41,434 nt of DNA, taken from positions 1 through 41,434 of IMG/VR virus record IMGVR_UViG_3300031957_001745. The stretch is one strand, 5' to 3'. The stretch's first letter is position 1. Each line of letters begins with the position of its first letter. Source of the stretch: a virus. The notes under the pieces are model-generated. The model searched no databases, was not told where the DNA came from, and was given only the letters and a program-made list of their open reading frames with translations. The position numbers were made by a program, and so were the translations under genes. Of the stretch, positions 110 through 41,434 are shown in pieces.

Positions 110-433
110 TTAACCAGCGTCTTGGTATTTCTTATTACTTTGTTGTTCTTCTAATGCTTCTTGTGCTATGCGGTGCCCCTCGGCAACACGTTCTTCTTGC
201 TCCTTCTCCTCGTCCTTACGACGTTGCTTGTCTTGCTCTTCATCACGAATCTGCTGCTCCCGAATCTTCTGGTTCAGCTCTTCGCGCTTCTTATCTTGTT
301 CGTCCCACAGAGCTTCAAACTGTGCGTCGGTGAGTCCAAGGATGTACTCGTCGGTGTAGTTGAAACACTCAATCTTATGTAGTCTCTCAACACGCTTAGC
401 CAACAAGTCGTACTGTTCTTCGCTTAGGTTCAT
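110..433 (-). CDS. Highly charged coiled-coil protein, unknown function
   Basis: 107 residues. The first 45 look globular; from there to about residue 95 it is almost wholly Glu, Lys, Arg and Gln with no Pro or Gly, as in a single long helix or coiled coil. It has no signal peptide or membrane segment. It lies between a 52-residue gene and the P-loop ATPase, all on one strand with gaps of only a few bases, so it is expressed with replication genes. I do not recognise the family; a structural or partner-binding role is only a guess. Confidence 0.7.
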   Translation of the reverse strand: MNLSEEQYDLLAKRVERLHKIECFNYTDEYILGLTDAQFEALWDEQDKKREELNQKIREQQIRDEEQDKQRRKDEEKEQEERVAEGHRIAQEALEEQQSNKKYQDAG

Positions 434-439
434 ATTTAT

Positions 440-598
440 TTATGCTTCAATTCTTTTAATAACTTCCATTGCTGTAATTTCAGGAACAACTGTTGAAGAA
501 TATTCACCTGTTGTTGCTTTTGCTACAGCATCTATAGTGATGAAATAGCGTAATTTTTTAGGACAATGATAAGCTATCCATTGATAAATTTTCTCCAT
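440..598 (-). CDS. Small conserved phage protein (52 aa)
   Basis: I chose the start MEKIYQWIAYHCPKKLRYF at 598, 1 nt after the TAG of the upstream gene (602-600), rather than a longer frame that would overlap that gene. The pattern CPKKLRYF, then ATTGEYSSTVVPEITAMEV, then KR resembles a short protein found in many phage early regions, recalled from memory. It has no catalytic motif and no clear membrane segment. Function unknown. Confidence 0.7.
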   Translation of the reverse strand: MEKIYQWIAYHCPKKLRYFITIDAVAKATTGEYSSTVVPEITAMEVIKRIEA

Positions 599-599
599 A

Positions 600-980
600 C
601 TATTTTTTCTTCTTCTTAGCCTTAGTAAAGTTCGACCCCTTTTTCTTCTTGCCACCAGTGTTACCGCCACCAACAGCTTCTAGGAAGTGAGATATTTGTC
701 CGTTCTCTTCTGCAATCTCGAGGTTCTTTAGGGTCAACGCTTCGATGAGAAACGCTTGCACATGACTCTTAAACTCAGGATTTGCATTGAGTGGGACGAT
801 GGTCTGGATGTCCTCGAGCACTGGAACAGGGTTCCCATCCTCATCAAGACGATCCTTACCATCTTTATCCTTACTCACCTCACCAGTATCAACGACTACA
901 GTACCGAACACAGCAGCAAAGAGCTTACCCTTTTTGTCTGGTACGTCCTGAATCGTTAGTTTTAGTGAGTGTATTTTCAT
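600..980 (-). CDS. Unknown 126-aa protein with lysine-rich tail
   Basis: It starts MKIHSLKLTIQDVPDKKGKL at 980. Residues 1-60 look like a beta-rich domain with an acidic turn (residues about 37-50: DKDGKDRLDEDGN). Residues 60-100 are helical. A GGGNTGG linker then leads into a tail that ends KKKKGSNF and AKKKKKK. Such a tail can bind nucleic acid, but that is inference. It sits 2 nt downstream of the 52-residue gene at 983-1141. No family recognised. Confidence 0.7.
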   Translation of the reverse strand: MKIHSLKLTIQDVPDKKGKLFAAVFGTVVVDTGEVSKDKDGKDRLDEDGNPVPVLEDIQTIVPLNANPEFKSHVQAFLIEALTLKNLEIAEENGQISHFLEAVGGGNTGGKKKKGSNFTKAKKKKK

Positions 981-982
981 AA

Positions 983-1141
983 TTATTCTTTGTTTAATTT
1001 TTCGACAGCTTGTACCAACAGATCAATAAGTATGTTCTGCTGTACCATTTGTCGTACCATTTCTTTCTGAACGTCAGTCTCAGTAAGTGCAGCTGGGCTG
1101 TTCACTTCTGTTGGGACTTCGTAGTATTTTGTTTCTGACAT
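983..1141 (-). CDS. Small helical protein (52 aa), unknown
   Basis: The ATG at 1141-1139 gives MSETKYYEVPTEVNSPAALT and the frame ends in TAA at 985-983. The second half (MVRQMVQQNILIDLLVQAVE) is a likely amphipathic helix. It fills the gap exactly between the genes at 1149 and 980, and operon spacing is the main support for it being real. No family recognised. Confidence 0.6.
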   Translation of the reverse strand: MSETKYYEVPTEVNSPAALTETDVQKEMVRQMVQQNILIDLLVQAVEKLNKE

Positions 1142-1148
1142 ATTGTTT

Positions 1149-1595
1149 TTATTTATTAGTTTTCTTAATCTTCACAAACTTTGCTGGTGTGTCTTTCACA
1201 TCACGCTTAGCGTCTTGGAACTCGTAGCCAGTAGCTTCTGCCAACAGATTGATAGTCTTCAGATTCTTTTCACGGTAATCGTGGTAAATCTTTAAGAAAT
1301 TAGCAAACTGTGTCTGAAGTTCTGCGAAGTCCTTTTTTGTAATAAGCTCATGCCCTTTCCATGTTGGGTATGTGCGCTGTGACTGTCCGCAACCCATTGG
1401 TACGATGCCACCTCGTGCAATAGTTTCACGTGCTGATGAGTTCATAAATGACTCGGTTGCTGATGAGTAGTCGGCAACAGGTGAGTCCTTTAGTGCTTCA
1501 TTGAGTTCTATACCCGGTTGCTCTTCCTTCTTGGTGAAGGCTTTGACGGCAACAATGATGAGCACTACTGTGTTTATAATTACTAGTGTTTCCAT
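1149..1595 (-). CDS. Membrane-anchored unknown protein (148 aa)
   Basis: The N terminus METLVIINTVVLIIVAVKAF is a single membrane segment or uncleaved signal anchor, followed at once by basic residues. The soluble part has a GGIVPMGCGQSQRTYP loop near residues 62-77 and then a mostly helical region (residues 85-130). It lies 1 nt downstream of the DUF2829 gene. A product anchored in the inner membrane with the bulk on one side is what the sequence shows; the function is not recognised. Confidence 0.7.
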   Translation of the reverse strand: METLVIINTVVLIIVAVKAFTKKEEQPGIELNEALKDSPVADYSSATESFMNSSARETIARGGIVPMGCGQSQRTYPTWKGHELITKKDFAELQTQFANFLKIYHDYREKNLKTINLLAEATGYEFQDAKRDVKDTPAKFVKIKKTNK

Positions 1596-2137: not shown

Positions 2138-2265
2138 TAATCTTTTATTATCCTTATAAACCCAATACCACAACCTCGCCAATACCTCGGCTTCCTTAGG
2201 CACAGCCACACAGGACCGATAGCTGCTTCAATGCCTATTATTGTTGTGACGATGCGGAAGTTCAT
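2137..2265 (-). CDS. Small hydrophobic protein (42 aa), coupled on both sides
   Basis: The ATG at 2265-2263 overlaps the primase TGA (2264-2262) as ATGA, and its TAA (2139-2137) overlaps the next gene's ATG as TAATG. The product MNFRIVTTIIGIEAAIGPVW continues with a basic stretch (LCLRKPRYWRG) and ends FIRIIKD. This is one hydrophobic segment of about 20 residues followed by positive charges, so a membrane protein. Double translational coupling is the best evidence that it is real. No family recognised. Confidence 0.55.
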   Translation of the reverse strand: MNFRIVTTIIGIEAAIGPVWLCLRKPRYWRGCGIGFIRIIKD

Positions 2266-3305
2266 ACTTTATTAATTAATGTTTTTATAGCTTGTGGCAT
2301 CGTCACACCATCACGCTGCATGACAATATCTATACTGTCAGCGTACTTCGCACATACATGACAGTAACAGCTATTGTTACGCGCGTAGTATGTAAGCGAA
2401 GGGTCATGGTCCTCGTGCCATAGGCACTTAGTGACCGGGTACCGACCGCGTGTATTGAACTCCAGCAAGGTTGTACAGTCGACATCCTTAGCCTTCAGTC
2501 GATCATCGTCACCTTTGTATGTCTTCTTGTGAGCCTTGCCAGCAGTATCAGTTGGCATAGCTGGTACAGTGTGGTGCTCTATATATAGACGATGGAATAA
2601 ATTATCTCCCCACTTACCAGCAATAATCTGAGCTTCTTCTTCTACTTCAGCAACAGACGTGTAGCCCTTTGCGCTCTTCATTAGATCATGGAAGTTACCA
2701 CCATGAGCAACATAATCACTGATGTCTTTAATGCCCGGGATATTGGATGGTACGAAGATAACTTTTGCAGTCGGCAACAGCTCAAGAACTTTGATAGCTC
2801 CCTTGTGTCCAGCTTCGTCGTTGTCAAAGCAGATATACACTTCATAGTTCTTGAGTAGGTCTACCCACTCCTTCTGGAATGATAGTGCGCCACCGGTAGA
2901 ACTAACAGCTGGTATACCAAGACTCCAGCATACGAGGGTGTCGAGTTCTCCTTCTGTTATTACTACTTTCGGCTTCACTGGAATCATACGAGCTGTAGCC
3001 CTGTCTGGTTTGTGTGTCATTTGTGGCTCGGCAACAAGTTTATCTGCTCCATATAATGTAATCTTCCCCCCGCGGTCGTATAGATACTTTGGCTTAATGT
3101 CACCTTCCAGTGGGTTACGTCGATATTTATTAAAAAAGTGTTCGCCATCTATGTGATGGACCGGAATAACGATAGCGTCCTGTAGCCCTAGATGTGGGAT
3201 GTCCCCAGTTGATATAGAAAAAGCGTCGATAATCTTATCTGTGATTCCGCGCTTGTTTAGCCATGAGCGAGACTGTGAGTCTAACTGTTGTTTATTCTCT
3301 TGCAT
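2262..3305 (-). CDS. DnaG-type primase with permuted domains (TOPRIM then C-terminal CHC2 zinc finger)
   Basis: Start taken at the ATG at 3305 (MQENKQQLDSQSRSWLNKRG), 6 nt after an extended -10 box, giving 347 residues; a GTG at 3323 would lie in the promoter. Residues 1-70 resemble the region before TOPRIM in DnaG (SRSWLNKRGITDKIIDAF). The TOPRIM core follows: VVITEGELDTL with Glu near 119 and CFDNDEAG near 160. The zinc finger lies at the C terminus: C294-x2-H297 and C315-x2-C318, with the HEDHDPSL signature between. Usual DnaG primases carry this finger at the N terminus. It should make RNA primers for replication. It heads the long minus-strand operon. Confidence 0.85.
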   Translation of the reverse strand: MQENKQQLDSQSRSWLNKRGITDKIIDAFSISTGDIPHLGLQDAIVIPVHHIDGEHFFNKYRRNPLEGDIKPKYLYDRGGKITLYGADKLVAEPQMTHKPDRATARMIPVKPKVVITEGELDTLVCWSLGIPAVSSTGGALSFQKEWVDLLKNYEVYICFDNDEAGHKGAIKVLELLPTAKVIFVPSNIPGIKDISDYVAHGGNFHDLMKSAKGYTSVAEVEEEAQIIAGKWGDNLFHRLYIEHHTVPAMPTDTAGKAHKKTYKGDDDRLKAKDVDCTTLLEFNTRGRYPVTKCLWHEDHDPSLTYYARNNSCYCHVCAKYADSIDIVMQRDGVTMPQAIKTLINKV

Positions 3306-3320
3306 AACTGCATTGTAACA
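3306..3320 (-). promoter_or_regulatory. Extended -10 promoter for a leaderless primase mRNA
   Basis: On the minus strand TGTTACAAT (3320-3312) is followed by 6 nt and then ATG. With the usual 6-7 nt from the -10 box to the transcription start, the mRNA would begin at or next to the AUG. No Shine-Dalgarno sequence is present. Same geometry as at 8230, 12608 and 31195. Confidence 0.6.
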
Positions 3321-3350
3321 CACGTGACAGTAATGACGGACAGTATGCTA

Positions 3351-3383: not shown

Positions 3384-3477
3384 CGGCAACAACCGGCAAG
3401 ATGGATAGATCACTCGGCAACAGTGGTTTACTCGGCAACACGATCTACTCGGCAACAAAGGGTAATCACTCGGCAAC
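3384..3477 (+). repeat. Cluster of five CGGCAAC motifs
   Basis: CGGCAAC begins at 3384, 3415, 3433, 3450 and 3471, all in the same orientation, with spacings of 31, 18, 17 and 21 nt. All five continue to CGGCAACA and the last four read CTCGGCAACA. A near copy (CCGGCAAG) lies at 3393. This is the densest patch of a motif spread over the whole genome (see findings). Confidence 0.9.
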
Positions 3478-3488
3478 AGATAAGTTTA

Positions 3489-3513
3489 TACCCCAGCGTG
3501 TTTTGCTGGGGTA
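3489..3513. promoter_or_regulatory. Perfect 9-bp hairpin
   Basis: TACCCCAGC (3489-3497) and GCTGGGGTA (3505-3513) pair perfectly around the loop GTGTTTT. The right arm with two more bases (GCTGGGGTACG) is repeated at 3702-3712. There is no U-run on either strand right after it, so it is not a classic terminator. Confidence 0.6.
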
Positions 3514-5762: not shown

Positions 5763-6213
5763 GCCTGTTTATAACTTTTAAAGCCGTCCGCGGTTTGATA
5801 TCTTGCATGTAATGTATCGCGGTGACGTTTTAAAAACGCTTACAATTGATTCTATGGCTTCACTTTTGTCGGTTTACCTTGCTTTTTACACATGGCGCGT
5901 CATTCATATTCATTTCAGATTGTTGCCGTTTATCCAATTTCGCACTATACCACGCCATTTTGAACGTCGCACAATCTATCTTTTGCGTCATTCAATCAAG
6001 ATATCCTTATTTATAGCCATATTTTTTGTCCCCATCGTGTCAAGTCTGACGTGTTTTGCGACATTCATGTGATATGATGAGGGGGTGGGGGTGTATGGGG
6101 CATGATTTCAATAATTTATTGAGTGATGATACAACGGCAACCCCCTTTCGTTTCCAAATATATTTTTTTAATACTCACAAATATTACTCAGACAAATTTA
6201 CAGATAAATCAAA
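5763..6213. other. Noncoding leader region of the virion operon
   Basis: No convincing gene. It contains the words GCGTCATTCA (5897, 5985), GCGACATTCA (6058) and GCGACGTTCA (minus strand, 5970-5961), which match the copy at 3372; two CGGCAAC motifs (minus at 5922, plus at 6135); and a G-rich stretch at 6079-6100 with three runs of four or more G. Iterated words flanking the divergent promoters suggest a second regulatory or replication locus. Confidence 0.45.
6070..6078 (+). promoter_or_regulatory. Extended -10 promoter for the virion genes
   Basis: TGATATGAT fits TGnTATAAT with one change. Transcription would start near the G-rich stretch at 6085 and give a 130-nt leader before the first virion gene. 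No clear -35. Confidence 0.4.
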
Positions 6214-6921
6214 ATGGCAGTAGTAGACCCAGAAACAAACAAAGTAGACCCATCAAAAACTAACGGAGGTAAGCGGGCTGGTTCTGGTGCCAAAAAAGGT
6301 TCAGGTGGTCGTCGTGTAGGTGCTGGTCGTCCAAAGGGGACAAAAAACGTAAAAACCATCCTCAAGGAAGAAGCAATGAAGGAGGAAGCGAAAAAAAATG
6401 CTCTAAAAAAAGAATTGTACGATATGCTTCCAGACGCACTAAAACGCTCAGATCGTGCTCTTCAAAAAGCTCTCGCTGAAATTAATGCTGAAGAAGTTGA
6501 GGAAACATTCAAAAAACGAATAGCATTACACTCAAATCAGCTTCTAACAGCCATGCTTACTGCTGCAATGGGGCAACAATTCTTATATAAAATCACCACA
6601 GCCATAGATTCCAAAGGAAAAGTCAAAAAAACTCATGTCCAAGTTCGTGATCCAGACGAAATTCGTGAATATTTAGACAATCCAATGAAAACTGAAGGTC
6701 AGGATTATTACTATATTTCCGAAACACAACCAGACATCACCGCCATCAACTCTTTGTTGGACAGAATGATGGGTCGACCGACAACAAAAGTCGTAGGTCC
6801 AAAGAATTCTGACGGTAGTGAAGGACCAATTAAGGTTTTGTCTGTAAATTACAGCCTTCCAGCCCCAGAACCAGCAGAAGCTGTAGTCGAACAAGTAGTT
6901 CACGAAGCAATCGAAGAATAA
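6214..6921 (+). CDS. Small terminase subunit (probable)
   Basis: 235 residues directly before the large terminase, with 1 nt between them. Residues 18-45 are a Gly-Lys-Arg-rich stretch with GAGRPKGTKN, typical of the DNA-binding end of many small terminases and other phage DNA-binding proteins. Residues 50-130 are helical. The C-terminal part (DITAINSLLDRMMGRP) resembles the end of such subunits. It would recognise phage DNA and hand it to the large subunit. Call rests mostly on position. No Shine-Dalgarno sequence precedes the ATG. Confidence 0.65.
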   Translation: MAVVDPETNKVDPSKTNGGKRAGSGAKKGSGGRRVGAGRPKGTKNVKTILKEEAMKEEAKKNALKKELYDMLPDALKRSDRALQKALAEINAEEVEETFKKRIALHSNQLLTAMLTAAMGQQFLYKITTAIDSKGKVKKTHVQVRDPDEIREYLDNPMKTEGQDYYYISETQPDITAINSLLDRMMGRPTTKVVGPKNSDGSEGPIKVLSVNYSLPAPEPAEAVVEQVVHEAIEE

Positions 6922-6922: not shown

Positions 6923-8212
6923 ATGCAAGTACAAGTCCCACACAAATTTATTCCACGTGATTATCAGCTCCCACTCTTCCAAGCAATGGATGGGGGTATT
7001 AAACGAGCCATTCTCGTGTGGCACCGACGTGCCGGCAAGGATAAAGCTTGTTGGAATTACATGATTAAGCGCGCTTTCGAAAAAGTAGGTACTTATTTTT
7101 ATTTTTTGCCGGAATATTCTCAGGCTAAAAAGGTTATTTGGGACAATATCGACAACGACGGCTTCCGTATGCTCGATCATATTCCAGAAGAACTTGTTGC
7201 CGGGACCAATTCCCAAGAACTAAAAATCACCCTCGTAAACGGCAGCATCATACAGCTCATAGGTGCAGACAATTTCCATAAATCAGGTGTAGGAACCAAC
7301 CCAGTCGGAGTTGTTTTGTCGGAATACTCTATCAACAATCCAGAAGTATGGAACTTCATCCGTCCGATTCTCAAGATCAACGGAGGTTGGGCTATTTTCA
7401 ACTTCACTCCACGTGGACAGAACCACGCATACCAATTGCTGGAAATGGCGAAAAATAATCCAGATTGGTTCTGTCAGACTCTTACTGTTGCCGACACCAA
7501 CATCCTTACAGAAGGCGAAATCGAAGAAGAGCGATTGGAAGGAATGAGTCAGGCGATGATCGACCAAGAGTATTACACTAAGTTTATTGAATCGGCAACA
7601 AGCTTCTTCAAAAATATCAATGATGTTTGTACTCTCGAAGAATCTCCACACAATCCACTACACATGTTCCAAATGGGAGTCGACCTCGCAAAATATCAGG
7701 ACTACACAGCCATTTCAGTGATTGATTTGAACACTCTCGAGCAAGTGTATCTTGAGCGATTCAACCAATTGGACTGGAACTTACAGAAGGCAAAGATTGA
7801 AGCTGTATATCACAAATTCAATCGTCCTGTTGGTTATATAGATGCGACTGGCGTGGGTGATCCTATCGTTGAAGATTTGAATAGTCGGGGGATTATGCTT
7901 ACTCCTTACAAATTTAACGAAGCCAACCGGAAGGATTTGTTGACCAACCTTAGTATTCGGATGGAGCAAGGGAAAGTTCGCTTATTGAATGATGAGATTC
8001 TGAAAGATGAGTTGGGATATTTCCAATATGAGATGTCAGATCGTGGTAAACTTAGAATAAAGGTTCCGGACAACCTTCACGATGATACCGTTTTTGGAAC
8101 GGCTCTATCTTGTGTAGATTTGCCGGACAAACCACTGCGGGTAAATAGACAAACTAGAGGGTTCCAACAAACCACAGGTATTACACCTATGTACGGTGGA
8201 CTTGAGTTTTAA
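6923..8212 (+). CDS. terL: Large terminase subunit (packaging ATPase-nuclease)
   Basis: 429 residues, near the usual size. The ATPase half has VWHRRAGKDK as its Walker A variant (residues about 31-40, the RRAGKD form) and VVLSEY as Walker B with Glu (about 129-134). The nuclease half has the three acidic clusters expected of an RNase H-like fold: GVDLAKYQDYTA (about 252-263), GYIDATGVGD (about 303-312) and HDDTVFG near the C terminus. It drives DNA into the prohead and cuts it. It contains three CGGCAAC motifs in both orientations. Confidence 0.93.
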   Translation: MQVQVPHKFIPRDYQLPLFQAMDGGIKRAILVWHRRAGKDKACWNYMIKRAFEKVGTYFYFLPEYSQAKKVIWDNIDNDGFRMLDHIPEELVAGTNSQELKITLVNGSIIQLIGADNFHKSGVGTNPVGVVLSEYSINNPEVWNFIRPILKINGGWAIFNFTPRGQNHAYQLLEMAKNNPDWFCQTLTVADTNILTEGEIEEERLEGMSQAMIDQEYYTKFIESATSFFKNINDVCTLEESPHNPLHMFQMGVDLAKYQDYTAISVIDLNTLEQVYLERFNQLDWNLQKAKIEAVYHKFNRPVGYIDATGVGDPIVEDLNSRGIMLTPYKFNEANRKDLLTNLSIRMEQGKVRLLNDEILKDELGYFQYEMSDRGKLRIKVPDNLHDDTVFGTALSCVDLPDKPLRVNRQTRGFQQTTGITPMYGGLEF

Positions 8213-8229: not shown

Positions 8230-9930
8230 ATGATTTCAGACGAATTACTATTGCAGCAACATCGTCGAGAAAAAGAAGATTCTGTTCGTTTTAAAGAGCG
8301 AAGAACGGAACAATGGAATGAGAATTATCTTTTATATCGAGACAAGGTTTTTACTAATAGATTGACACAACGGCAACCGGTTAACATTCCGGTTATTCGT
8401 GAAACCATTCAGACATGGATTTCGAAAATTGACGAACAACCTCAACTTAATTTTGAAGCTCGTGGTCGTCTACAAAAAGACAAGCGTGGAGAATTGCTTG
8501 TTAACGAGATGTGGAATTTTACATACGATTCAGAGAATCTTCAGCTGTTGGATAATCTTGACAAGAAGATTGTTGGGCTACAAGGACGCTCATTTAAGTA
8601 TTGGCACTTCACTGAAGGACAAGTGCGATGTAATGTTATCGACCCATATGATATTGATATTGACCCACGAGTGAATCCTCTTAACATCAACACTGCTGCA
8701 TACTTGAATCACAAAAATATTTTTGTACCACTCAGAAAGATTCTCGCTAATCCAACCTACCGAGCAGAAGGTAAACAAATGCTTAAACAGTATCTTGACT
8801 CACGTGAAGGTATTCTTCGTGCTGCTGACAATGAGCAAGAGTACCAAATGCGACAAGCGCGATTGAACGATCTAGGAGCAAACAACTATGACGAATACCG
8901 AGCGTCAGATGTGATGGTTGAAATTAATCGTTCATACAAAAACATGTGGGTTGAGGAAGAGAAGAAATTTGTACGACACATTGTTGTTACTGCCCAAGAC
9001 CAAGCTATCCTATATGTTGGTCCTACTAAGAAGGCTCTTGGTATCGACTTCCTTCCATTTTCTACTTGGGGTAGTGATCCAGATTTGAATGACATTTGGT
9101 CTGATGGTGTTGCCGACTCAGTTCGCACTATCAACAAAGTCATCAACATGTACTTCTCTCAGGATCTTGAGAACCGAACATATCGAAACTTCGGAATGTA
9201 TTTCTTCAATACTTTGAATGGTAACTTCCAACCACAAGCGTTCGAAGCGAAGCCATTTGGAATGTATGGCGTTCCCGGCAACCCAGATGAAATTGTGAAG
9301 CAACTTCGAATTGAACCACTTGAAGATACTACTAACGCGATGGAGTATTTGAAGAATATGGTGCAGTCATCTGTAGCCCAGACTCCAACCGAACGAGGTG
9401 AACAAATGAAGTCACGAACTACTCTCGGTGAAGTACAACTCAACTTGCAAGCATCACAGTCTCGAAACGAGGTTGTAGCGAAGCAGTATCAAACAGCATG
9501 GAAAGAATCTGGTCGTATCTGGTACGAGCTTATGAAGAACAACGCTGTTGGCTCAATGAAGCTCTACAAGAAAGGTAAGAATGGACAGACATTCACACGA
9601 AGCGTTACCCCAAACGAATGGAAAGTTCCTGATGGTTATGAATGTAAAGTTATTCTCAAGTCAGAGAAAGAACAGCATGACGATATGGAATTCCAGAAGC
9701 TTCAATTCGTGAAGCAGTCATTCCAACAGAACCCTGTTGCCCAGAAGATTGCACGTCGTAAGGAACTCGAGATTCTCGGATGGACACCAGATGAGATTGA
9801 CGAGGTTATGCAAATTGAGGAGCAACCTAATCCTGTCGGTAATCCACAGTTAGAGGATGGCGAACAGCCTACTACACCGCAAAATGATGTACCATTAGGT
9901 GAAGAGGTGTTAAGTCCTCAAACTGTATGA
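8230..9930 (+). CDS. Portal protein
   Basis: 566 residues, a typical portal size, directly after the terminase. The N terminus is charged and helical; residues 55-130 hold the QPVNIPVIRETIQTWISKID and NEMWNFTYDS segments seen in podoviral portals; a long helical C-terminal region (LQASQSRNEVVAKQYQTAWK) precedes a Pro-Gly-Glu tail. It forms the ring through which DNA enters and to which the tail attaches. Its stop overlaps the next ATG as ATGA. Confidence 0.88.
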   Translation: MISDELLLQQHRREKEDSVRFKERRTEQWNENYLLYRDKVFTNRLTQRQPVNIPVIRETIQTWISKIDEQPQLNFEARGRLQKDKRGELLVNEMWNFTYDSENLQLLDNLDKKIVGLQGRSFKYWHFTEGQVRCNVIDPYDIDIDPRVNPLNINTAAYLNHKNIFVPLRKILANPTYRAEGKQMLKQYLDSREGILRAADNEQEYQMRQARLNDLGANNYDEYRASDVMVEINRSYKNMWVEEEKKFVRHIVVTAQDQAILYVGPTKKALGIDFLPFSTWGSDPDLNDIWSDGVADSVRTINKVINMYFSQDLENRTYRNFGMYFFNTLNGNFQPQAFEAKPFGMYGVPGNPDEIVKQLRIEPLEDTTNAMEYLKNMVQSSVAQTPTERGEQMKSRTTLGEVQLNLQASQSRNEVVAKQYQTAWKESGRIWYELMKNNAVGSMKLYKKGKNGQTFTRSVTPNEWKVPDGYECKVILKSEKEQHDDMEFQKLQFVKQSFQQNPVAQKIARRKELEILGWTPDEIDEVMQIEEQPNPVGNPQLEDGEQPTTPQNDVPLGEEVLSPQTV

Positions 9931-10590: not shown

Positions 10591-10630
10591 TTAATTAGCC
10601 AAACCCGTTAGACCGGACGGCAACAATACT

Positions 10631-12607: not shown

Positions 12608-13204
12608 ATGACAACTAACGAAATTACACAATCAGCTCGACGCAAAGTGCTTGAAACAACAGATGAAATTGTCAGTAATGACGTTATTCTTCTGTATGCA
12701 AATCAAGCATATATTGAGGTATATAAAAGAGTTTTCACCAGTAATGAGGTGAAGACAGTAGATGTATCATGTACTAATGGTGTATGTACACTACCAACTC
12801 GCTACGGTCGTATGTACGCGAAGGCTGTCGACCAAGACGGCAACGAGTTTGAAGAAGTTTCAATTGCAGACTTCCATCAAAACGAACAACACTATGTGTA
12901 CACCATCGACAATGGTCAGCTACTTATCAGTAGTGATGATGTCACTACACTGACTACTCGTTACTTCGAGCAGCCGGAAACACTCACAACAACAGTGAAT
13001 CCAAGTATCGACGATTACTTCCACGAAGTGATTGTGTACGGAACTATCTGGAGGATCCATGAAGATCTTCAAGATGAAGAACTGGCAACTTACTACCAAA
13101 CTAAGTTTGAAGAAGAGCTAACACGACGTATTGCTGCTCAATCTTCATACGAGGAAACTAATCAACGTGGTGGTGAGATGTTTGGTTATCAGCGATTGAT
13201 ATAA
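12608..13204 (+). CDS. Head-tail adaptor/connector (probable)
   Basis: I use the ATG at 12608 (MTTNEITQSARRKVLETTDE); an upstream ATG at 12578 lies inside the hairpin and promoter. 198 residues. The pattern of an N-terminal helix pair (IVSNDVILLYANQAYIEVYK), a beta middle (YGRMYAKAVD) and an acidic helical end is usual for adaptors that follow the capsid gene in podoviruses. It would join the portal to the tail. Family assignment is by position and general shape only. Confidence 0.65.
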   Translation: MTTNEITQSARRKVLETTDEIVSNDVILLYANQAYIEVYKRVFTSNEVKTVDVSCTNGVCTLPTRYGRMYAKAVDQDGNEFEEVSIADFHQNEQHYVYTIDNGQLLISSDDVTTLTTRYFEQPETLTTTVNPSIDDYFHEVIVYGTIWRIHEDLQDEELATYYQTKFEEELTRRIAAQSSYEETNQRGGEMFGYQRLI

Positions 13205-25098: not shown

Positions 25099-25575
25099 AT
25101 GGCACAACAATTTACTCTCATTGATAATGAGACAAAGCTACCAGCTGACGTATCAAACGGACATATCTTCGTTTCAGCCGACCAAGATAACTCAACAGGA
25201 ACGAAATACCAAAGTATTCGTATGGTTATCGACTACAAAAACCTTCAGTCTTCTGACGGTACAGTAGGTCTTCAAGCTGTAATTGAAGGTAAGGCAGCTA
25301 ATGGTGAATACTACCCAATTGCATACCAGTTTGAGGATTTCCGACCTGTTGGATTCCAGCAGTTCCGAGAAATCAATCTCGATCCAGAACTTGTATGGTT
25401 CGATCCGGGTATCGACAACATCGTATACGTTGGTAATTCAACCATTGGACAAATCTCTAACCAGCAAGGAGTGTTGCCGGAAACATGGCGAATGTGTATC
25501 AGGATTACAGATCCAAACAACACATTCCAATCGGTACAACTTTCTGCTTACGGAGAGCTAACAAAACCTGTTTAA
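25099..25575 (+). CDS. Structural-operon protein (158 aa), unknown
   Basis: MAQQFTLIDNETKLPADVSN then beta strands throughout (KYQSIRMVIDYKNLQSSDGT, MCIRITDPNNTFQSVQLSAY). No signal peptide, membrane segment or Cys-rich site. It lies between the spike gene and a zinc-ribbon gene. Probably a tail or capsid accessory protein by place and composition. Confidence 0.65.
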   Translation: MAQQFTLIDNETKLPADVSNGHIFVSADQDNSTGTKYQSIRMVIDYKNLQSSDGTVGLQAVIEGKAANGEYYPIAYQFEDFRPVGFQQFREINLDPELVWFDPGIDNIVYVGNSTIGQISNQQGVLPETWRMCIRITDPNNTFQSVQLSAYGELTKPV

Positions 25576-29079: not shown

Positions 29080-29367
29080 ATGAAACGCATTTTTGGTGCC
29101 GTTGTAGGACTGGGAATTGTTATTGGACTGGGATATATACTACTAGGCAGTAGTACAATTGAGGTTACAAATGAACCGCAGACACTTGCGACATCAACAA
29201 GTGCAACTGTAGAAGAGGAGGTAGAACTTGATGTGATTGACTCGGCAACAATTGAGCTAGAGAGAATCAATCAAGAACTCGATGCTGAAGAGCAGAAGCT
29301 TCTACAAGAGATCGAAGAACGTAAAGCTCGACTAGAACGAATTAGAGAGACTCGTTCGTCTTTTTAA
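29080..29367 (+). CDS. Membrane stalk protein with coiled coil (95 aa), spanin-like or lysin N terminus
   Basis: MKRIFGAVVGLGIVIGLGYI is a membrane anchor preceded by Lys/Arg. A Thr/Ser-rich linker (residues 30-45) and a charged coiled coil (residues 50-93, ELERINQELDAEEQKLLQEI) follow. This resembles the inner-membrane subunit of a spanin. But the frame ends TCT TTT TAA and the lysozyme-like frame lies exactly one base back, so it may instead be the N-terminal part of one longer lysin made by a -1 frameshift (see findings). Confidence 0.7.
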   Translation: MKRIFGAVVGLGIVIGLGYILLGSSTIEVTNEPQTLATSTSATVEEEVELDVIDSATIELERINQELDAEEQKLLQEIEERKARLERIRETRSSF

Positions 29368-29402
29368 TTAGCCCCAGAGCAAAGCGTGTTGCCGATGCCA
29401 TT

Positions 29403-31240: not shown

Positions 31241-31300
31241 ATCAGAAGTGGGGATAAACAACAACCATTAACAGACTTAAAGTCTAAACAAAAAAACATT

Positions 31301-33878: not shown

Positions 33879-35009
33879 CTAAGGTCTATACTCCGATGGA
33901 ACGAAGTCTTTTCCTAGTTCGATGCTTTCATATACCATATTATCACATTTCCCTCCCAGCAAATTGTAGTAAATCACAGGCTTGAGGGCATTGATTCTAC
34001 GGATTCGAGCCTTCATCTGCACGTAGTTACGCACACTATAGCTCTGACTCACGAAGATCATGCACGAGAACGAAGGTATCTCGAACCCTGCTCCCACACT
34101 TGACTGAATGATAAAATAACACTCGCTGCTATTCTCTGCATCCTTGATAACTCGATCCACGTCTTTAGTTCGTCCGTCAAGTATAAACGTCTGACGCTCC
34201 TTAGATAGTTTCTTGTAAAGTTCGTCGATCTGTTGTCGGTAATGAACCACGCAAACGACCTTTCGGTAGTTCTTTGATATCTTTGTAATCTCTTTATTCT
34301 TTCCAGCTTGCTCCAGAAGGTGGTCTTCGACAAACTGTTTTGCTGCTTCCCATTCTTCATTCTTTTCATATTTAGGTGGTTTAAGCTTAATAACTTTGTA
34401 TGTCTCCGGAGGTAACTCGTCAACCATATCTTTCATTAAAGCTACCGTAGCATGTTTGTCGATCACAACTTGCATCATCTTCTGCCACCCGGCAACAGGC
34501 ATGTAAGCCGGTCGCGGGAGGTATGGCATATTTTCTAGCTTGAAGTATTCACTTCGCCATTCTTTGAAGTCAATATATTTTCCAATGTAACAGAGTAAGG
34601 TATGTAGGTTCCATGGTGTAGAACGAACAGGTGTGGCTGTGAGAAGGAGGATATGAGCCTGAGGGTTCTGCCGGATGTAGTTGTACAGTTTATCGGCACA
34701 CTTACTCCTTTTCTTTGGCACGAACAACGGACTGGCAAACGCGTCGGCTTCGTCGACCACAATGCACGTAGGATTGAAGGGTAGTGACTTTTTGAGTATT
34801 GTCTGTGGGGTGAAAATGGACGCTTGCGGAGTTCTCTCTCCCCAATCTCCCACAATCTGTTTGGGACAGAATATAACCGGGTTCCCTCCCCGGGAGCCTT
34901 GCTCAATCCATCGACCAGCCGTGTACGACTTACCAGTTCCCGCTTCGCAACAGAGCATCGCATGGTCATTGGTTGAGCTAAGAAATTTTTCTTGCCATTC
35001 ATAATTCAT
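33879..35009 (-). CDS. SF2 (DEAD-type) helicase
   Basis: 376 residues. Walker A AGTGKS (about 23-28), DEAD box in VVDEADAF (about 90), motif III LLTATPVR (about 122), and a C-terminal helicase lobe with VVHYRQQIDELYKKL, IIQSSVGAGFEIPSFSCMIF and YVQMKARIRRINA (motif VI region). It is shorter than most phage UvsW or SNF2-like helicases. It probably remodels DNA at forks or recombination intermediates. ATG at 35009 is 3 nt after the upstream stop. Confidence 0.85.
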   Translation of the reverse strand: MNYEWQEKFLSSTNDHAMLCCEAGTGKSYTAGRWIEQGSRGGNPVIFCPKQIVGDWGERTPQASIFTPQTILKKSLPFNPTCIVVDEADAFASPLFVPKKRSKCADKLYNYIRQNPQAHILLLTATPVRSTPWNLHTLLCYIGKYIDFKEWRSEYFKLENMPYLPRPAYMPVAGWQKMMQVVIDKHATVALMKDMVDELPPETYKVIKLKPPKYEKNEEWEAAKQFVEDHLLEQAGKNKEITKISKNYRKVVCVVHYRQQIDELYKKLSKERQTFILDGRTKDVDRVIKDAENSSECYFIIQSSVGAGFEIPSFSCMIFVSQSYSVRNYVQMKARIRRINALKPVIYYNLLGGKCDNMVYESIELGKDFVPSEYRP

Positions 35010-35306: not shown

Positions 35307-36004
35307 ACGTTCTTTAGGTAATGCTCAAGCGTATAAATCCAATCGACCTCATTCTGTCCACTGTTCCGCTTCTGATCCAGCAACCACTCAAGATAACCCG
35401 GGTCAGTAGCAGCGATATCAGCCAACATATTACCGTTGTACTTACCAAACTTCAGCTTAGCAAAGATCACTGGCTTACTTGATATCTCCATCAGTTCTTC
35501 AATAGATGGGTTTCCAAGTCGTTCTACGAGTGCATTGTATACCTCGACCAACACGGCAACATCACCGTCAGCGGTGTGGGCTACAGCGTTCTCCATTTCG
35601 ATACCATAGTAGTATCGCAGGTACTGCATCCTGTGACTCTCCATCTCATCCATCTGGTCCAGCTTGTGTGACAGCTTCTTGGTGTCGATGTAGTCCTTGA
35701 ATACCACACCTTCACGCTCGAGCATCATTATGTCGAATGGTGCGTTGTGGGCTACAAGAACGTACCCCTCGTCAGCATACTGCTTGAGTATGGTCTGCAT
35801 CATAGAACCCTCAAAAGGTGCCTTGTGCTCAACCATCTTGTTGGTAATGTGACTCACCGCCATAGCTCCTACTTTAATAGGTAGTGGTGGCTTGAAGAAC
35901 TCTTGTGTCATTGCACCATCAAGTGAGTATGCAACCTCACACAAACGATCCTCTTCTTCTAGTCCTGTTGTTTCTACGTCGAGAAATAGTAGTTTTTTTT
36001 CCAT
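35303..36004 (-). CDS. DnaQ/ExoX-like 3'-5' exonuclease
   Basis: Start taken at MEKKLLFLDVETTGLEEEDR; an ATG 12 nt earlier is possible. DEDDh motifs: LDVETTG (residues 8-14), VAHNAPFD (about 90-97), and HTADGDVAVL (about 148-157). The C-terminal part (LKFGKYNGNMLADIAATDPG, YLEWLL) is the ExoX-type extension. It would trim single-stranded 3' ends in replication or repair. The ORF overlaps the previous gene by 68 nt. Confidence 0.88.
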   Translation of the reverse strand: MEKKLLFLDVETTGLEEEDRLCEVAYSLDGAMTQEFFKPPLPIKVGAMAVSHITNKMVEHKAPFEGSMMQTILKQYADEGYVLVAHNAPFDIMMLEREGVVFKDYIDTKKLSHKLDQMDEMESHRMQYLRYYYGIEMENAVAHTADGDVAVLVEVYNALVERLGNPSIEELMEISSKPVIFAKLKFGKYNGNMLADIAATDPGYLEWLLDQKRNSGQNEVDWIYTLEHYLKNV

Positions 36005-36810: not shown

Positions 36811-37677
36811 CTAGAAATCCTTACCCTCACCAACATCTTCGACCTCCAGACCTTGTTCGCGCCACATTTCTATGACAGCTGGTCGGTCATCAATAACCTT
36901 AATGATGTCGTATTGTTTGAGGTATTGCTTATAAATGTCAAACTTCACTTCGGTGTCTGGTCGCTTGTCTCCCTTGCGACGCATAATAAGATGAGTATAG
37001 GAGTCCATACCATTGTCCCGCAACCACTGCTCAGTAACTTCTCTATAATCCTCCGGTCGAGCAGAAACGAAGAGTAGCTGTGCGTCGTGTGCCTTAGCAT
37101 CATTGAGCGCATTTTTGTACACATCCTTGCGTGGTGTGTCTTTATCCATCTCAGAAAAGAATCCTTTCCAGTCCTTCTTCTCACCTTGAAGATGGTGTAG
37201 GCGGTGCTTACAGTCGGCAACAGTACCGTCGATATCACAGACCACGATCTTATCGAGGTTTAAGTGATCGTACTGCACTGCCATATTCATAATGACCGCT
37301 TTGCCAACAGGGTTCTTATCTGTACGTGCTGCGTCGCGAGTGATGCACTCGGTAACATCTGTCTCCTTCATCATGTCTATGATCTCGAACTTAGCTCCGA
37401 ACTGCTGAGCCATCATCTTCCACATCTCTATGTGCTTATCACCAAGATTAGTGTCATCGACAATGACGTTCTTGTCTTGCTGGAGTAGGTTCGCTACCAA
37501 CATCTGTGCAGCGTCTACTGTCACACCTTCACGCTTGCCGGTCCAGATATTGTGGTGCAGCATCTCTCGAAGTAGGTCACGGTTTACTCGATAGAATTCT
37601 CCACCACCTTTTATAATTTCTTTTGCTTTAGAAGACTTGCCGGATGCTGGGAGTCCTCGCATTGCTACTAGTTTCAT
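36811..37677 (-). CDS. pseT: Polynucleotide kinase / 3'-phosphatase (PseT-type)
   Basis: 288 residues, close to the T4 enzyme. The N-terminal kinase has P-loop GLPASGKS (residues 8-15) and VDDTN (about 73-77). The C-terminal phosphatase has CDIDGTVAD (about 147-155, the DxDGT motif) and FVSARPEDYR. It restores 5'-phosphate and 3'-hydroxyl ends of RNA. With the RNA ligase one gene away and several tRNA genes, it makes a tRNA-repair set against host anticodon nucleases. Overlaps the upstream stop as ATGA. Confidence 0.9.
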   Translation of the reverse strand: MKLVAMRGLPASGKSSKAKEIIKGGGEFYRVNRDLLREMLHHNIWTGKREGVTVDAAQMLVANLLQQDKNVIVDDTNLGDKHIEMWKMMAQQFGAKFEIIDMMKETDVTECITRDAARTDKNPVGKAVIMNMAVQYDHLNLDKIVVCDIDGTVADCKHRLHHLQGEKKDWKGFFSEMDKDTPRKDVYKNALNDAKAHDAQLLFVSARPEDYREVTEQWLRDNGMDSYTHLIMRRKGDKRPDTEVKFDIYKQYLKQYDIIKVIDDRPAVIEMWREQGLEVEDVGEGKDF

Positions 37678-38067: not shown

Positions 38068-38997
38068 TTAGTTTGACCTGTCGGCAACAGAAATGTCACC
38101 AGACAATTTATCCTTATAAATCTGTACCGCCTTCTTCAGTGCTACTCTCTTGAGTGACTTGAAGTTCACAGTACCCACCTTCTTCGCAATCTCCCAGATC
38201 TCTTCGGTCAGCATGTCGTGATATGCAGTGTTGGTGATACGTGGGATGTGCTTGAGGTCAAGCTTCTCATCAATCTCAGGCTGCAACTTGTGCATGATCT
38301 TCTCGATACGAGCAAGAGTCATGTACTTGTTCACAATATACATCTCCCAATATGTGTCTGAGTGCTTGTTGTTGCCACCAAACGTGACACCATTGTCTTC
38401 CTTAAATGCTTCTGTCACGATCTTAGCGTGGTTGTGATTACCAAACTTATCTCGAAACTCTTCATTCTTGAGCACGATACCTTCACCCTTGTCTCCTAGA
38501 GCTGATAGACCAGCAAGAGCTTTGATGACAAGAAACTCTTCTTCTGTTGGATTAGTCCAAGAACCATGGTACTGAGGTGTTTTGAATCCATACCTATCAG
38601 CTATTTCTTTAATAGCTTCACGAGACATAAACTCTTCTCGCTCATCTTCTGTGAGATTAGGTTCACGTAAGGTTGCATCAAACAAGTAGAACTGTTTGTA
38701 AGCTGTCTCATTGTAAGAGATAGTGTGCCTTACTAACCATTCACCATATATGCGCATCATTGGGTGTTCGGAGAATAGTTTTGTAATAGCTGGATCAGCC
38801 TTACAGTATTCAACGAAGCCATTAAAGCCTTCAGTGATACGTTGGTTACGAGTACCAAACTGTAACTCACCTTCCTCTAACCATATTTGTACGTTCGAAC
38901 CGTCAAGCTTTTCCTCAACGTGAACTGTTCCGAAGAGGATGCCGTCTGTCTCATCTTTTCCTAGTCTATGTACCTTTGGGTACTTCTTAAAGTTCAT
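38068..38997 (-). CDS. RNA ligase (Rnl2-like nucleotidyltransferase)
   Basis: 309 residues. Motif I is KLDGSN with Lys near 30 (the AMP-binding lysine); FGTRNQ (motif Ia), YGEWLV (motif III), GEGIVLKN (motif IV), and NHAKIV (motif V) follow in order. It would seal nicks or breaks in RNA, probably tRNA, after the end-healing enzyme at 36811. The C-terminal part is helical. One CGGCAAC motif lies at its end (38082). Confidence 0.87.
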   Translation of the reverse strand: MNFKKYPKVHRLGKDETDGILFGTVHVEEKLDGSNVQIWLEEGELQFGTRNQRITEGFNGFVEYCKADPAITKLFSEHPMMRIYGEWLVRHTISYNETAYKQFYLFDATLREPNLTEDEREEFMSREAIKEIADRYGFKTPQYHGSWTNPTEEEFLVIKALAGLSALGDKGEGIVLKNEEFRDKFGNHNHAKIVTEAFKEDNGVTFGGNNKHSDTYWEMYIVNKYMTLARIEKIMHKLQPEIDEKLDLKHIPRITNTAYHDMLTEEIWEIAKKVGTVNFKSLKRVALKKAVQIYKDKLSGDISVADRSN

Positions 38998-39353: not shown

Positions 39354-39548
39354 TTAACCTTTAATCATTATTGCTTCACCTTGCTTAAATCGAGCACCAC
39401 CCATTTCACCAGCTTTTGGTCCCTTGCCACCTATTAGAGATACACAAAGGTACTCCACAAGAGTCTTAGGATTTATATATTTCCATACACTTGTCACAAT
39501 CCATGGATTATTTTCTGGGTCTTTGATAGTTCCTCCTATTTTAAGCAT
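39354..39548 (-). CDS. Small beta protein (64 aa), unknown
   Basis: Start taken at MLKIGGTIKDPENNPWIVTS (39548). Short strands, no Cys. First gene after the promoter at 39576-39602, so transcription from there could raise the RNA-repair genes independently of the main operon. No family recognised. Confidence 0.6.
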   Translation of the reverse strand: MLKIGGTIKDPENNPWIVTSVWKYINPKTLVEYLCVSLIGGKGPKAGEMGGARFKQGEAIMIKG

Positions 39549-39575
39549 GTTCACTTCTTAACTACTAATACTTTT

Positions 39576-39602
39576 ATTGTAGCACACTGTGTGCTAATGC
39601 AA
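39576..39602 (-). promoter_or_regulatory. Internal promoter with perfect palindrome
   Basis: TTGCAT (39602-39597), 15-nt spacer, TGCTACAAT (extended -10 ending at 39576). The palindrome TAGCACA-CTG-TGTGCTA (39580-39596) fills the spacer. It would drive the RNA-repair genes downstream. Confidence 0.6.
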
Positions 39603-39607
39603 GTGAG

Positions 39608-40024
39608 TTATTCACCTTTGATGGCTTTCATGGCTTCACTATATGTAGCCAGCCCACCATACATCTCACCCGACAAAGAACGTGCGTAGTGGTCCAAGAA
39701 TCTGAATACTTGATTCCTACTCTTCTCATTCTTAATGAGCCATTTGTATTGTAGTCGGTAACACTCCAGCTCTTGTTCATAACGGAACTCAGGGTCAGCA
39801 AGATATTTCTTCCACCACTTATCAGGTCCACCAAACTCTTCTTGCTGGACTGTGTGATGTGACTCGTGAGCAATTAAGTCTTCGGTCATCATCCCACTAT
39901 GTGTAGTAATCAGATCACCGTAAGTGAAGATAACATCAGACTCCCAGTCGACATCAAACTTTTCCTTCACTGCATCAAGGATCCATTGCGGTGGTTTTTT
40001 GTTTGAGATTTGTACTACTTTCAT
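39608..40024 (-). CDS. HExxH metallopeptidase-like protein (138 aa)
   Basis: The core is DLIAHESHHTVQQEEFGGPD, with HESHH as an HExxH zinc motif (residues about 52-56) and a second Glu/Tyr-rich helix (FRYEQELECYRLQYKW, about 78-93) that could give the third ligand. 138 residues fits minimal zincin folds. It begins with an ATGA overlap to a small membrane protein. It may cleave a host protein; the target is unknown. Confidence 0.68.
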   Translation of the reverse strand: MKVVQISNKKPPQWILDAVKEKFDVDWESDVIFTYGDLITTHSGMMTEDLIAHESHHTVQQEEFGGPDKWWKKYLADPEFRYEQELECYRLQYKWLIKNEKSRNQVFRFLDHYARSLSGEMYGGLATYSEAMKAIKGE

Positions 40025-40209
40025 ATATCACAATTTTCTAACTGCTCGGCAACACAATATGCTTCCAGTTTCTTATACTCAATATCATTTGCTCTATCAA
40101 GCTCTCTGTGAAGAGTTGTTTGAATATTTTGAACACTGAAGAATATAAATGCCAGCCAAACTGCAATCCAAAATGTTCCAATATTTACTACTTCAATTTT
40201 TTTTGCCAT
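40021..40209 (-). CDS. Small membrane protein (62 aa)
   Basis: MAKKIEVVNIGTFWIAVWLA then FIFFSVQNIQTTLHRELDRA: one hydrophobic segment (residues 10-27) and a charged helix after it. It contains two Cys near the end (YCVAEQLENC). Sits between the P-loop ATPase and the HExxH gene. No family recognised. Confidence 0.65.
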   Translation of the reverse strand: MAKKIEVVNIGTFWIAVWLAFIFFSVQNIQTTLHRELDRANDIEYKKLEAYCVAEQLENCDI

Positions 40210-40211
40210 AA

Positions 40212-41434
40212 CTATTTATCTTCCTCATCTGTCTCATAATCATCTTGTTCGACCTTCTTTGGTGGGTCTATTCTTTTCACAATATCACGGAGGTTAGTGT
40301 CAGCTATACTCCATGACTTCGCTTGGTTTTCATGCTCCGCTTCGTTCAACTTCACGACACCGATAGCCGACAACACACTCATGCCACGCTCCACTGCTGT
40401 GTGGTGAAGACCGGTGTAAGCAGCAATGTTACGTGCTGTCGCTTTGAATGTCTTAGTGGTACCAGTGATGTATGACTCTTCTAGTGCCAACACTGCATTG
40501 AAGTACGCCCGACGCTTATCATCTGCAAGGCTGTAACCAATCCATTCGATAGCGGTGCGGAGGTCAGACGGCAACACTGTCTCACCTGTCTCAGCATGGT
40601 GCATAACTGTGAACGCTTTAGCGACGTTAGTCAGCTGCTTCATTACACGGAATGGCATCTCTGAGACTGGGAACTCGGAAACAAAGTGCTCTCTATCATC
40701 TGTAATAACTGGTGTACGCAATCGTGTACCAGCTTTAGAGATATTTAGAATCGCTTGCATGGTTTCGTCGTCCACCTCAATCTTTGTTGGATCTACCTTC
40801 GGCATTATCTCAGAGAAATATTTACCGTATGCAAGCTTCAGCTTCTCATCCATATCTCGAGCAGCAAAGTTATTGCTCATCACGAATTCAACAGCTTTGT
40901 CTTCATCCATTGCCTTCATTCTATAGTTGATGAAACGCTCACCCATGTCGGCAACCTCACTGAAGTGACGATAGATTGCTGGAGTAGAACCGGCAATCAT
41001 ACCAGCATGACCTTCCCATGTGATACCTTGACCACCAGATTTACCACTAGCCTTCGTCATACGTCCGTCATAAATCATACGGAACTGTGCGAGAATGGCG
41101 TTGCGGTCTTCACTATTTTTAGAGAAGAGCACAGTGAGGTCATCCATAGAGATGATGCCACTCGCTCCCTTCTTAATCTTAAAGATAAGTGACTGATTCT
41201 CTCCGTTACCACTAATGAAAGTGTTGGCGGTGAGGTCGTCAATCTGTAAGAACAGCTCCGGATTAGCTTTTGCAAGCGGTCGGATGTACTGAGACTTACC
41301 ACCAGATGATGGACCAATGATGGTCAGCCATACTGGATCACCTATCTTTTGACTATTAGCAATAACAGACGCGAGCATAGTATCAACGAGGTTGGTGTCC
41401 TCTATATATAGAACTTTTTTCAGCTCGTTGTGTA
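40212..41434 (-). CDS. P-loop ATPase, probable replicative helicase or loader (5' end lies at base 107)
   Basis: The frame is open to the end of the window and its start is at base 107 on the circle (about 412 residues). Walker A GPSSGGKS (residues about 45-52), Walker B IISMDDLTVL, and an arginine-finger type GERFINYRM make an AAA+/helicase-like core. The C terminus has a winged-helix-like TARNIAAYTGLHHTAVERGM. Gene order next to a TOPRIM primase on the same operon supports a replication role. The ATP-binding core is clear; helicase as opposed to loader is not. Confidence 0.8.
   Translation of the reverse strand, partial: HNELKKVLYIEDTNLVDTMLASVIANSQKIGDPVWLTIIGPSSGGKSQYIRPLAKANPELFLQIDDLTANTFISGNGENQSLIFKIKKGASGIISMDDLTVLFSKNSEDRNAILAQFRMIYDGRMTKASGKSGGQGITWEGHAGMIAGSTPAIYRHFSEVADMGERFINYRMKAMDEDKAVEFVMSNNFAARDMDEKLKLAYGKYFSEIMPKVDPTKIEVDDETMQAILNISKAGTRLRTPVITDDREHFVSEFPVSEMPFRVMKQLTNVAKAFTVMHHAETGETVLPSDLRTAIEWIGYSLADDKRRAYFNAVLALEESYITGTTKTFKATARNIAAYTGLHHTAVERGMSVLSAIGVVKLNEAEHENQAKSWSIADTNLRDIVKRIDPPKKVEQDDYETDEEDK
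41344..41434. repeat. Assembly overlap, right copy
   Basis: Exact duplicate of bases 1-91. The gene on the minus strand at 40212 onward continues through this copy and, on the circle, reaches its start codon at base 107. Confidence 0.93.

What the first reader, a model, noticed from the sequence alone, without database searches (positions are those of the whole stretch)
181..40955. An over-represented oriented motif, CGGCAAC(A), spread over the whole genome
Reading both strands by eye I found 39 copies of CGGCAAC. At this base composition about 3 are expected. 33 of the 39 extend to CGGCAACA. Plus-strand starts: 181, 1472, 1547, 2772, 3029, 3384, 3415, 3433, 3450, 3471, 6135, 7593, 8371, 9276, 10618, 12838, 13537, 15595, 16705, 19167, 26482, 29243, 34490, 35554, 37215, 38082, 40047, 40569, 40949. 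Minus-strand copies at 5922, 7196, 7487, 9109, 13902, 17247, 18668, 20028, 25473, 29388. Copies fall in different reading frames of unrelated genes and in noncoding DNA, so selection must act on DNA or RNA, not on protein. Candidates are a repressor-type site like the scattered stoperators of some phages, a recombination hotspot (Chi-like), a host DNA-uptake word, or a methylation-linked site. None is proven.
Basis: partly seen in the sequence, partly recalled or inferred. Interest (0 to 1): 0.85.

Follow-up and report, generated by a model that had tools for sequence, protein, structure and literature searches.

The report
Candidate Chi word in a phage
An uncultured 41-kb phage carries one exact 8-letter DNA word 33 times where about one is expected, in the way related Vibrio phages carry the bacterial recombination signal Chi, so the word is probably the Chi signal of its unknown host.

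Summary
It is the most over-represented 8-mer of the window (expected 0.6-1.5). Protein and codon usage do not explain it: 25 copies in genes against 0.7 ± 0.9 after synonymous shuffling, maximum 5 in 500. The word is sharp (8 bp, almost no flank information) and is kept by two relatives, 71-76% identical in DNA, at mostly different positions, so number rather than place is selected. Best reading: it is the Chi site (RecBCD/AddAB recombination hotspot) of the unknown host. Main evidence: in three Vibrio phages with a related terminase (two lineages without nucleotide similarity) the number-one 8-mer is the known Chi GCTGGTGG (17, 19 and 23 copies), equally dispersed, 50 of 59 on the terminase strand. 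Chi excess in phages without recombinases is published (PMC3784561). The window's words also sit on the terminase strand (29/39; 17 of 17 in the replication arm), as lambda biology predicts for RecBCD entering at the end left by packaging. Not shown: the host, any binding protein, any activity. A five-copy iteron-like array upstream of the primase keeps a phage-encoded binding protein as a rival. New word, known kind.

The parts
3384..3478 (+). Array of five CGGCAACA (3384, 3415, 3433, 3450, 3471) in the gap upstream of the primase gene; four share YACTCGGCAACA at 17-21 bp spacing
3489..3513 (.). Perfect 9-bp inverted repeat TACCCCAGC/GCTGGGGTA next to the array
181..188 (+). CGGCAACA
1472..1479 (+). 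CGGCAACA
1547..1554 (+). CGGCAACA
2772..2779 (+). CGGCAACA
3029..3036 (+). CGGCAACA
5921..5928 (-). CGGCAACA
6135..6141 (+). CGGCAAC (C)
7195..7202 (-). CGGCAACA
7486..7493 (-). CGGCAACA
7593..7600 (+). CGGCAACA, conserved in place in L035 and L050
8371..8377 (+). CGGCAAC (C)
9108..9115 (-). CGGCAACA, conserved in place in L050
9276..9282 (+). CGGCAAC (C)
10618..10625 (+). CGGCAACA
12838..12844 (+). CGGCAAC (G)
13537..13544 (+). CGGCAACA
13902..13908 (-). CGGCAAC (G)
15595..15602 (+). CGGCAACA
16705..16712 (+). CGGCAACA
17246..17253 (-). CGGCAACA
18667..18674 (-). CGGCAACA
19167..19174 (+). CGGCAACA
20027..20034 (-). CGGCAACA
25472..25479 (-). CGGCAACA
26482..26489 (+). CGGCAACA
29243..29250 (+). 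CGGCAACA
29387..29394 (-). CGGCAACA
34490..34497 (+). CGGCAACA
35554..35561 (+). CGGCAACA
37215..37222 (+). CGGCAACA
38082..38089 (+). CGGCAACA
40047..40054 (+). CGGCAACA
40569..40576 (+). CGGCAACA
40949..40955 (+). CGGCAAC (C)
6214..6921 (+). ORF just upstream of terL, probable small terminase subunit by position only (no family match); assumed side of the packaging cut
   Evidence: inference
6923..8212 (+). Large terminase subunit; defines the terL strand
   Evidence: phrog_2 E=4.8e-25
2262..3323 (-). DNA primase gene downstream of the array

Best explanation
CGGCAACA (written 5' to 3' on the terminase strand) is most likely the Chi sequence of the phage's unknown host: the word that the host's end-processing helicase-nuclease (RecBCD or AddAB) reads after entering at a double-strand end. 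Proposed events: packaging cuts the concatemer beside the terminase genes at about 6 kb; terminase and capsid cover the rightward end; the leftward end is free and the host enzyme enters there, moving left through the replication arm. Each CGGCAACA met from its 3' side can switch the enzyme from destruction to RecA-loading, which saves the concatemer and promotes recombination. Selection keeps number and orientation of the word high near that end, and the five-copy array 2.7 kb from the terminase genes would be a first strong barrier. Shown here: the enrichment, its independence from protein coding, its sharpness, its turnover, its polarity in this genome, and the same pattern with the known Chi in Vibrio phages with a related terminase. 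Inferred: concatemers or circularity, the packaging site, the host enzyme, and that the word is Chi.
For: Top 8-mer of the window and not due to coding (25 against 0.72). Vibrio phages ZCVPP1, D317 and CKB-S2, found through the window's terminase, have GCTGGTGG (Chi) as their rank-1 8-mer, 17, 19 and 23 copies against 1.8, 2.4 and 2.6, dispersed, 50/59 on the terL strand; ZCVPP1 shares no nucleotide similarity with the other two. Same sharpness without flank information. Chi over-representation in phages without recombinases, and its concentration near origin and packaging site, is published (PMC3784561). Polarity: window words are 29/39 on the terL strand, 18+/1- in the first 16 kb leftward of the terminase side and 11+/9- beyond, as expected if the enzyme enters at the open end and reads Chi from its 3' side, as in lambda (PMC2082072). 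The left-arm copies are antisense to the genes there, so coding direction does not explain their strand. Relatives L035 and L050 keep the number but mostly not the positions.
Against: The host and its enzyme are unknown; no bacterial genome with the word enriched was found, though only one phylum of small genomes could be reached (380 genomes, no strong outlier). The array shares a longer repeat (YACT before the word) than the dispersed copies, which a pure Chi model does not require. In L050 the three copies in the corresponding arm are 1+/2-. In the Vibrio phages the terL strand is mostly also the coding strand. A PD-(D/E)XK nuclease and an SSB-like protein are encoded, so recombination autonomy is uncertain. 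The word is less G-rich than known Chi sequences (from memory). GGGCTACA, a second enriched word, is unexplained. Most relatives with 53-63% identical portal proteins show no comparable word.
Confidence: 0.6

Rival explanations
1. A phage-encoded DNA-binding protein (replication initiator or repressor) has its main site at the 3384-3478 array, an iteron-type origin or operator upstream of the primase gene, and binds scattered single copies elsewhere, in the manner of stoperators or dispersed initiator boxes.
For: Five copies at 17-31 bp spacing in an intergenic gap, four with a shared 12-bp repeat, beside an inverted repeat.
Against: Dispersed copies lack the longer repeat and are nearly all-or-none over 8 bp; many lie deep inside genes; L050 keeps the words but has no such array in the corresponding gap; no repressor, integrase or initiator was recognised.
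Confidence: 0.2
2. Another host-determined DNA word: a modification, restriction, uptake or chromosome-organising site.
For: 7-8 bp asymmetric all-or-none words are typical of such sites; an oriented, regional strand bias would also suit a translocase-guiding site.
Against: Restriction sites are expected to be avoided rather than enriched (general knowledge); no methyltransferase was recognised in the window; the Vibrio phages with a related terminase point to Chi.
Confidence: 0.12
3. An RNA-level element: UGUUGCCG in left-arm transcripts bound by a protein or a small RNA.
For: All left-arm copies read TGTTGCCG in the transcript, including the array in the leader of the primase gene.
Against: Right-arm copies occur in both orientations about equally (12/10), which RNA recognition would not give.
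Confidence: 0.05
4. A by-product of codon or amino-acid usage.
For: Many genic copies fall on Val-Ala or Ala-Thr codons.
Against: Shuffling synonymous codons with all proteins fixed gives 0.72 expected against 25 observed, maximum 5 of 500; further copies are noncoding; relatives have copies at new positions.
Confidence: 0.02

Closest known systems
Chi-rich phages using host RecBCD (E. coli Chi GCTGGTGG; recombinase-less lambdoids, T5-like, P1-like; Bobay et al. 2013, PMC3784561)
   Same: One asymmetric 8-bp word, strongly over-represented, dispersed mostly in genes; in the window concentrated and oriented on the side of the replication genes and terminase.
   Different: Different word, unknown host and enzyme; density 0.8 per kb against about 0.2 per kb reported for recombinase-less lambdoids; an array of five copies.
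Vibrio phages ZCVPP1, D317 and CKB-S2 (terminases related to the window's)
   Same: Top 8-mer dispersed over the genome, mostly on the terL strand, sharp, beyond synonymous shuffles.
   Different: Their word is the classical Chi; 0.5-0.7 per kb; D317 and CKB-S2 have an annotated integrase.
Stoperators of Cluster A mycobacteriophages (PMC6550527)
   Same: Twenty to thirty asymmetric sites scattered over a phage genome; motif differs between related phages.
   Different: Stoperators are 13 bp, somewhat variable and predominantly oriented with transcription, with a phage repressor; here 8 bp, nearly all-or-none, against transcription in one arm and mixed in the other, no repressor recognised.
Iteron-type replication origins
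   Same: The 3384-3478 array: direct repeats at 17-21 bp beside an inverted repeat, upstream of a primase gene.
   Different: Most copies are single and far from the array, and relative L050 keeps the words without an array at the corresponding place.

Membership tests
Chi recombination hotspot (host RecBCD/AddAB word) | Word strongly over-represented and dispersed, not explained by coding | tested here: met
Chi recombination hotspot (host RecBCD/AddAB word) | Short, asymmetric word with sharp specificity | tested here: met
   same behaviour of true Chi in L220
Chi recombination hotspot (host RecBCD/AddAB word) | Active orientation relative to the enzyme's entry end | tested here: inconclusive
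   29/39 on the terL strand, 17/17 in the left arm, distance trend P=0.028; the packaging end is inferred; L050 left arm 1+/2-
Chi recombination hotspot (host RecBCD/AddAB word) | Word enriched in the host chromosome with strand bias | not testable with these tools
   host unknown; one phylum of small genomes sampled without strong outlier
Chi recombination hotspot (host RecBCD/AddAB word) | Host RecBCD or AddAB changes activity at the word | not testable with these tools
   needs enzyme and host
Chi-rich phage without its own recombinase | No recombinase and no RecBCD inhibitor | tested here: inconclusive
   none recognised, but a PD-(D/E)XK nuclease and an SSB-like protein are present and many genes have no known family
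Stoperators | Sites oriented with transcription | tested here: not met
   left arm all antisense, right arm mixed
Stoperators | About 13-bp site with a cognate phage repressor | tested here: not met
   8-bp core without flank information; no repressor recognised among the genes scanned
Iteron-type origin (array only) | Regularly spaced direct repeats bound by an initiator | tested here: inconclusive
   spacing 31, 18, 17, 21 bp and a nearby inverted repeat; no initiator gene recognised; no clear GC-skew switch exactly there

The most novel reading that the evidence does not exclude
The phage carries two host recombination 'dialects': CGGCAACA (33 copies) and GGGCTACA (10 against 0.5; 5 in 5.4 kb of relative L035), each the Chi of a different past or present host, so that words in phage genomes record host switches and reveal the Chi sequences of uncultured bacteria.
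Probability: 0.15. Interest if true: 0.8.

Novelty: new member of a known kind. Interest (0 to 1): 0.6.

Why it matters
Chi sequences are known for only a handful of cultured bacteria. If the top dispersed word of a phage equals the Chi of its host, as in three Vibrio phages here, phage genomes from metagenomes become a way to read Chi words of uncultured hosts, to link such phages to hosts, and to test how phages survive RecBCD/AddAB. CGGCAACA and CAGGGAC(T) (MW202510) would be two ready candidates.

Tried and rejected
Array shared with other phages: pattern scans of IMG/VR for paired words gave mostly chance hits, repetitive genes and GC-rich phages; whole-contig counts of the best ones were not enriched against their composition. 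Host through a terminase match in GTDB genomes: one MAG of a small-genome phylum, with a relative lacking the word; 380 genomes of that phylum show no strong outlier. Other phages of the same host: none found. AAGACCTA in L041 and similar words in other relatives fall away or stay weak under synonymous shuffling; the words of L275/L277 look like tandem-repeat words inside genes (judged from the overlapping words). GAGGACTA (L028) and AAGGAGAC (L015) were set aside as probable ribosome-binding sequence, without a test. No paper in the library holds CGGCAACA or TGTTGCCG as a word. Relatives with few Chi: phiVC8 (0 Chi), ZP6 (4) and BUCT555 (6 against 5.0 expected) have annotated adenylosuccinate-synthetase-like or diaminopurine-synthetase genes, 1.233 (7) an ERF recombinase; LP.2 has 5 and Klebsiella 37P2 has 1. 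Gaps between sites are not more even than random in the window (P=0.21), although they are in two of three Vibrio phages.
Full report
WHAT WAS CHECKED. The window is a whole IMG/VR virus record of 41,434 bases. Of its one-mismatch neighbours only CGGTAACA stands out (12 copies, 11 on plus). At the 34 copies outside the array the information is confined to eight bases plus an absence of G just before them.

NOT A CODING EFFECT. With every protein kept and synonymous codons shuffled genome-wide, genes should hold 0.72 +- 0.86 CGGCAACA (maximum 5 in 500 shuffles); they hold 25. GGGCTACA (9 against 0.43) and CGGTAACA (11 against 1.7) are also above expectation, less strongly. Copies fall on both strands, in several frames and in noncoding DNA.

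THE PHAGE. Large terminase, major head protein and structural genes run on plus (about 6.2-29.7 kb). The replication genes run on minus (5.7 kb to 1, then 41.4 to about 32 kb): a primase, a helicase, a DnaQ-like exonuclease, a polynucleotide kinase and an RNA ligase, with tRNA genes. The record is treated as circular or concatemeric because the minus-strand arm appears to continue across its ends; this is an inference. No annealing or strand-exchange recombinase and no RecBCD inhibitor was recognised, but a PD-(D/E)XK nuclease (30524-31264) and an SSB-like protein (31229-31936) are present, and many genes have no known family.

ANATOMY. Five copies lie at 3384-3478 in the gap upstream of the primase gene; four share YACTCGGCAACA at 17-21 bp spacing, next to a perfect 9-bp inverted repeat. 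In the left arm all 17 copies are on plus, against the direction of its genes; in the right arm 12 are plus and 10 minus. Measured leftward from the terminase side, the first 16 kb hold 18 plus and 1 minus, the rest 11 plus and 9 minus; minus copies lie on average 10 kb further away (permutation P = 0.028 with the array thinned).

RELATIVES. L035 (head protein 84% identical) and L050 (terminase 78%) keep the enrichment: 3 against 0.1 in 5.4 kb and 9 against 0.4 in 12 kb. Aligned at 76% and 71% DNA identity, only the sites at 7593 (both) and 9108 (L050) are conserved in place; the rest differ. L232 and L270 are nearly the same virus as L050. Relatives with 53-63% identical portal proteins have no comparable dispersed word. 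L035 is richer in GGGCTACA (5) than in CGGCAACA. The word is thus a property of a small clade and is kept by number rather than place.

THE KEY COMPARISON. Phages with a related large terminase and known hosts were examined. In Vibrio phages ZCVPP1, D317 and CKB-S2 the single most over-represented 8-mer is GCTGGTGG, the classical Chi (17, 19 and 23 copies against 1.8, 2.4 and 2.6; rank 1 of about 17,000-18,000). ZCVPP1 shares no nucleotide similarity with the other two, which are 69% identical to each other over 21 kb. Their Chi sites are dispersed, lie mostly in genes, have few near-misses, exceed synonymous shuffles, and lie on the terminase strand in 50 of 59 cases. Another podovirus with a related terminase, MW202510 from a Florida spring, has its own dispersed word CAGGGAC(T) (20 against 2.0). 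That Vibrio RecBCD reads this Chi is from general knowledge, not tested here. Other relatives do not show it: phages with annotated base-modification genes (phiVC8, ZP6, BUCT555) or an ERF recombinase (1.233) have few or no excess Chi, and so do LP.2 and 37P2.

MECHANISM. Published work shows that lambdoid phages lacking recombinases over-represent Chi (median observed/expected 3.1), with concentration near origin and packaging site, and that T5- and P1-like phages do the same (PMC3784561). In lambda, packaging leaves one end covered by terminase and the other open to RecBCD, which reads Chi from the 3' side of 5'-GCTGGTGG (PMC2082072). For a phage that packages rightward from the terminase side, the open end leads left, and the word must lie on the terminase strand. 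That is the strand found at 17 of 17 left-arm copies, with the array as a first barrier. The Chi reading therefore accounts for number, dispersion, sharpness, turnover and polarity together.

WHAT DOES NOT FIT OR IS OPEN. The host is unknown; 380 genomes of the only reachable phylum show no strong outlier. The array shares a longer repeat than the dispersed copies, so a DNA-binding protein may act there. L050's three copies in the corresponding arm do not show the polarity (1+/2-). In the Vibrio phages the terminase strand is also mostly the coding strand. The nuclease and SSB genes leave recombination autonomy uncertain. GGGCTACA is unexplained.

VERDICT. Observation confirmed. Chi-like host word 0.6; phage-encoded binding protein 0.2; other host word 0.12; RNA element 0.05; coding artefact 0.02. 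It behaves like Chi in most features that sequence can show; membership needs the host and its enzyme and is not claimed.

Noticed in passing
window 2262-3323 (-): Primase-like protein whose CHC2-type zinc-binding domain lies at the C-terminus (residues about 289-352) behind the Toprim region, the reverse of the usual DnaG order; possibly a permuted primase.
   Followed up: partly
window 8575, 9372, 20506, 29510, 33644, 35578, 35749, 2660, 2994, 3181; L035: A second over-represented word, GGGCTACA (10 against 0.5), also frequent in L035 (5 in 5.4 kb); it shares GGC.ACA with the main word, but the two mixed forms are not enriched.
   Followed up: partly
window 1597-1878 (-): Small protein matching Pfam Tad2-like (Thoeris anti-defence 2 domain), E=3.9e-27.
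   Followed up: no
window 3489-3513 and 3699-3711: The inverted repeat next to the array recurs in part: GCTGGGGTACG is repeated at 3505 and 3701.
   Followed up: no
L217 (MW202510.1), 3686-37862: Podovirus genome from Manatee Spring with its own dispersed word CAGGGAC (20 against 2.0) or CAGGGACT (12 against 0.5), a further Chi-word candidate.
   Followed up: partly
L278 4403-5000 and L279 30217-30313: In both Vibrio phages D317 and CKB-S2 three Chi sites in reverse orientation lie together between the head-tail adaptor and the major head protein genes.
   Followed up: no
window 30524-31264 (-) and 30080-30421 (-): Two consecutive ORFs with weak matches to the N-terminal and C-terminal parts of phage exonucleases (phrog_69, RecE-like phrog_434); possibly a split or frameshifted nuclease gene.
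   Followed up: partly
L050 6154, 6166, 8941, 9559: In the L050 virus CGTCAACA, one base off the main word, is also enriched (4 against 0.3), which is not seen in the window.
   Followed up: no
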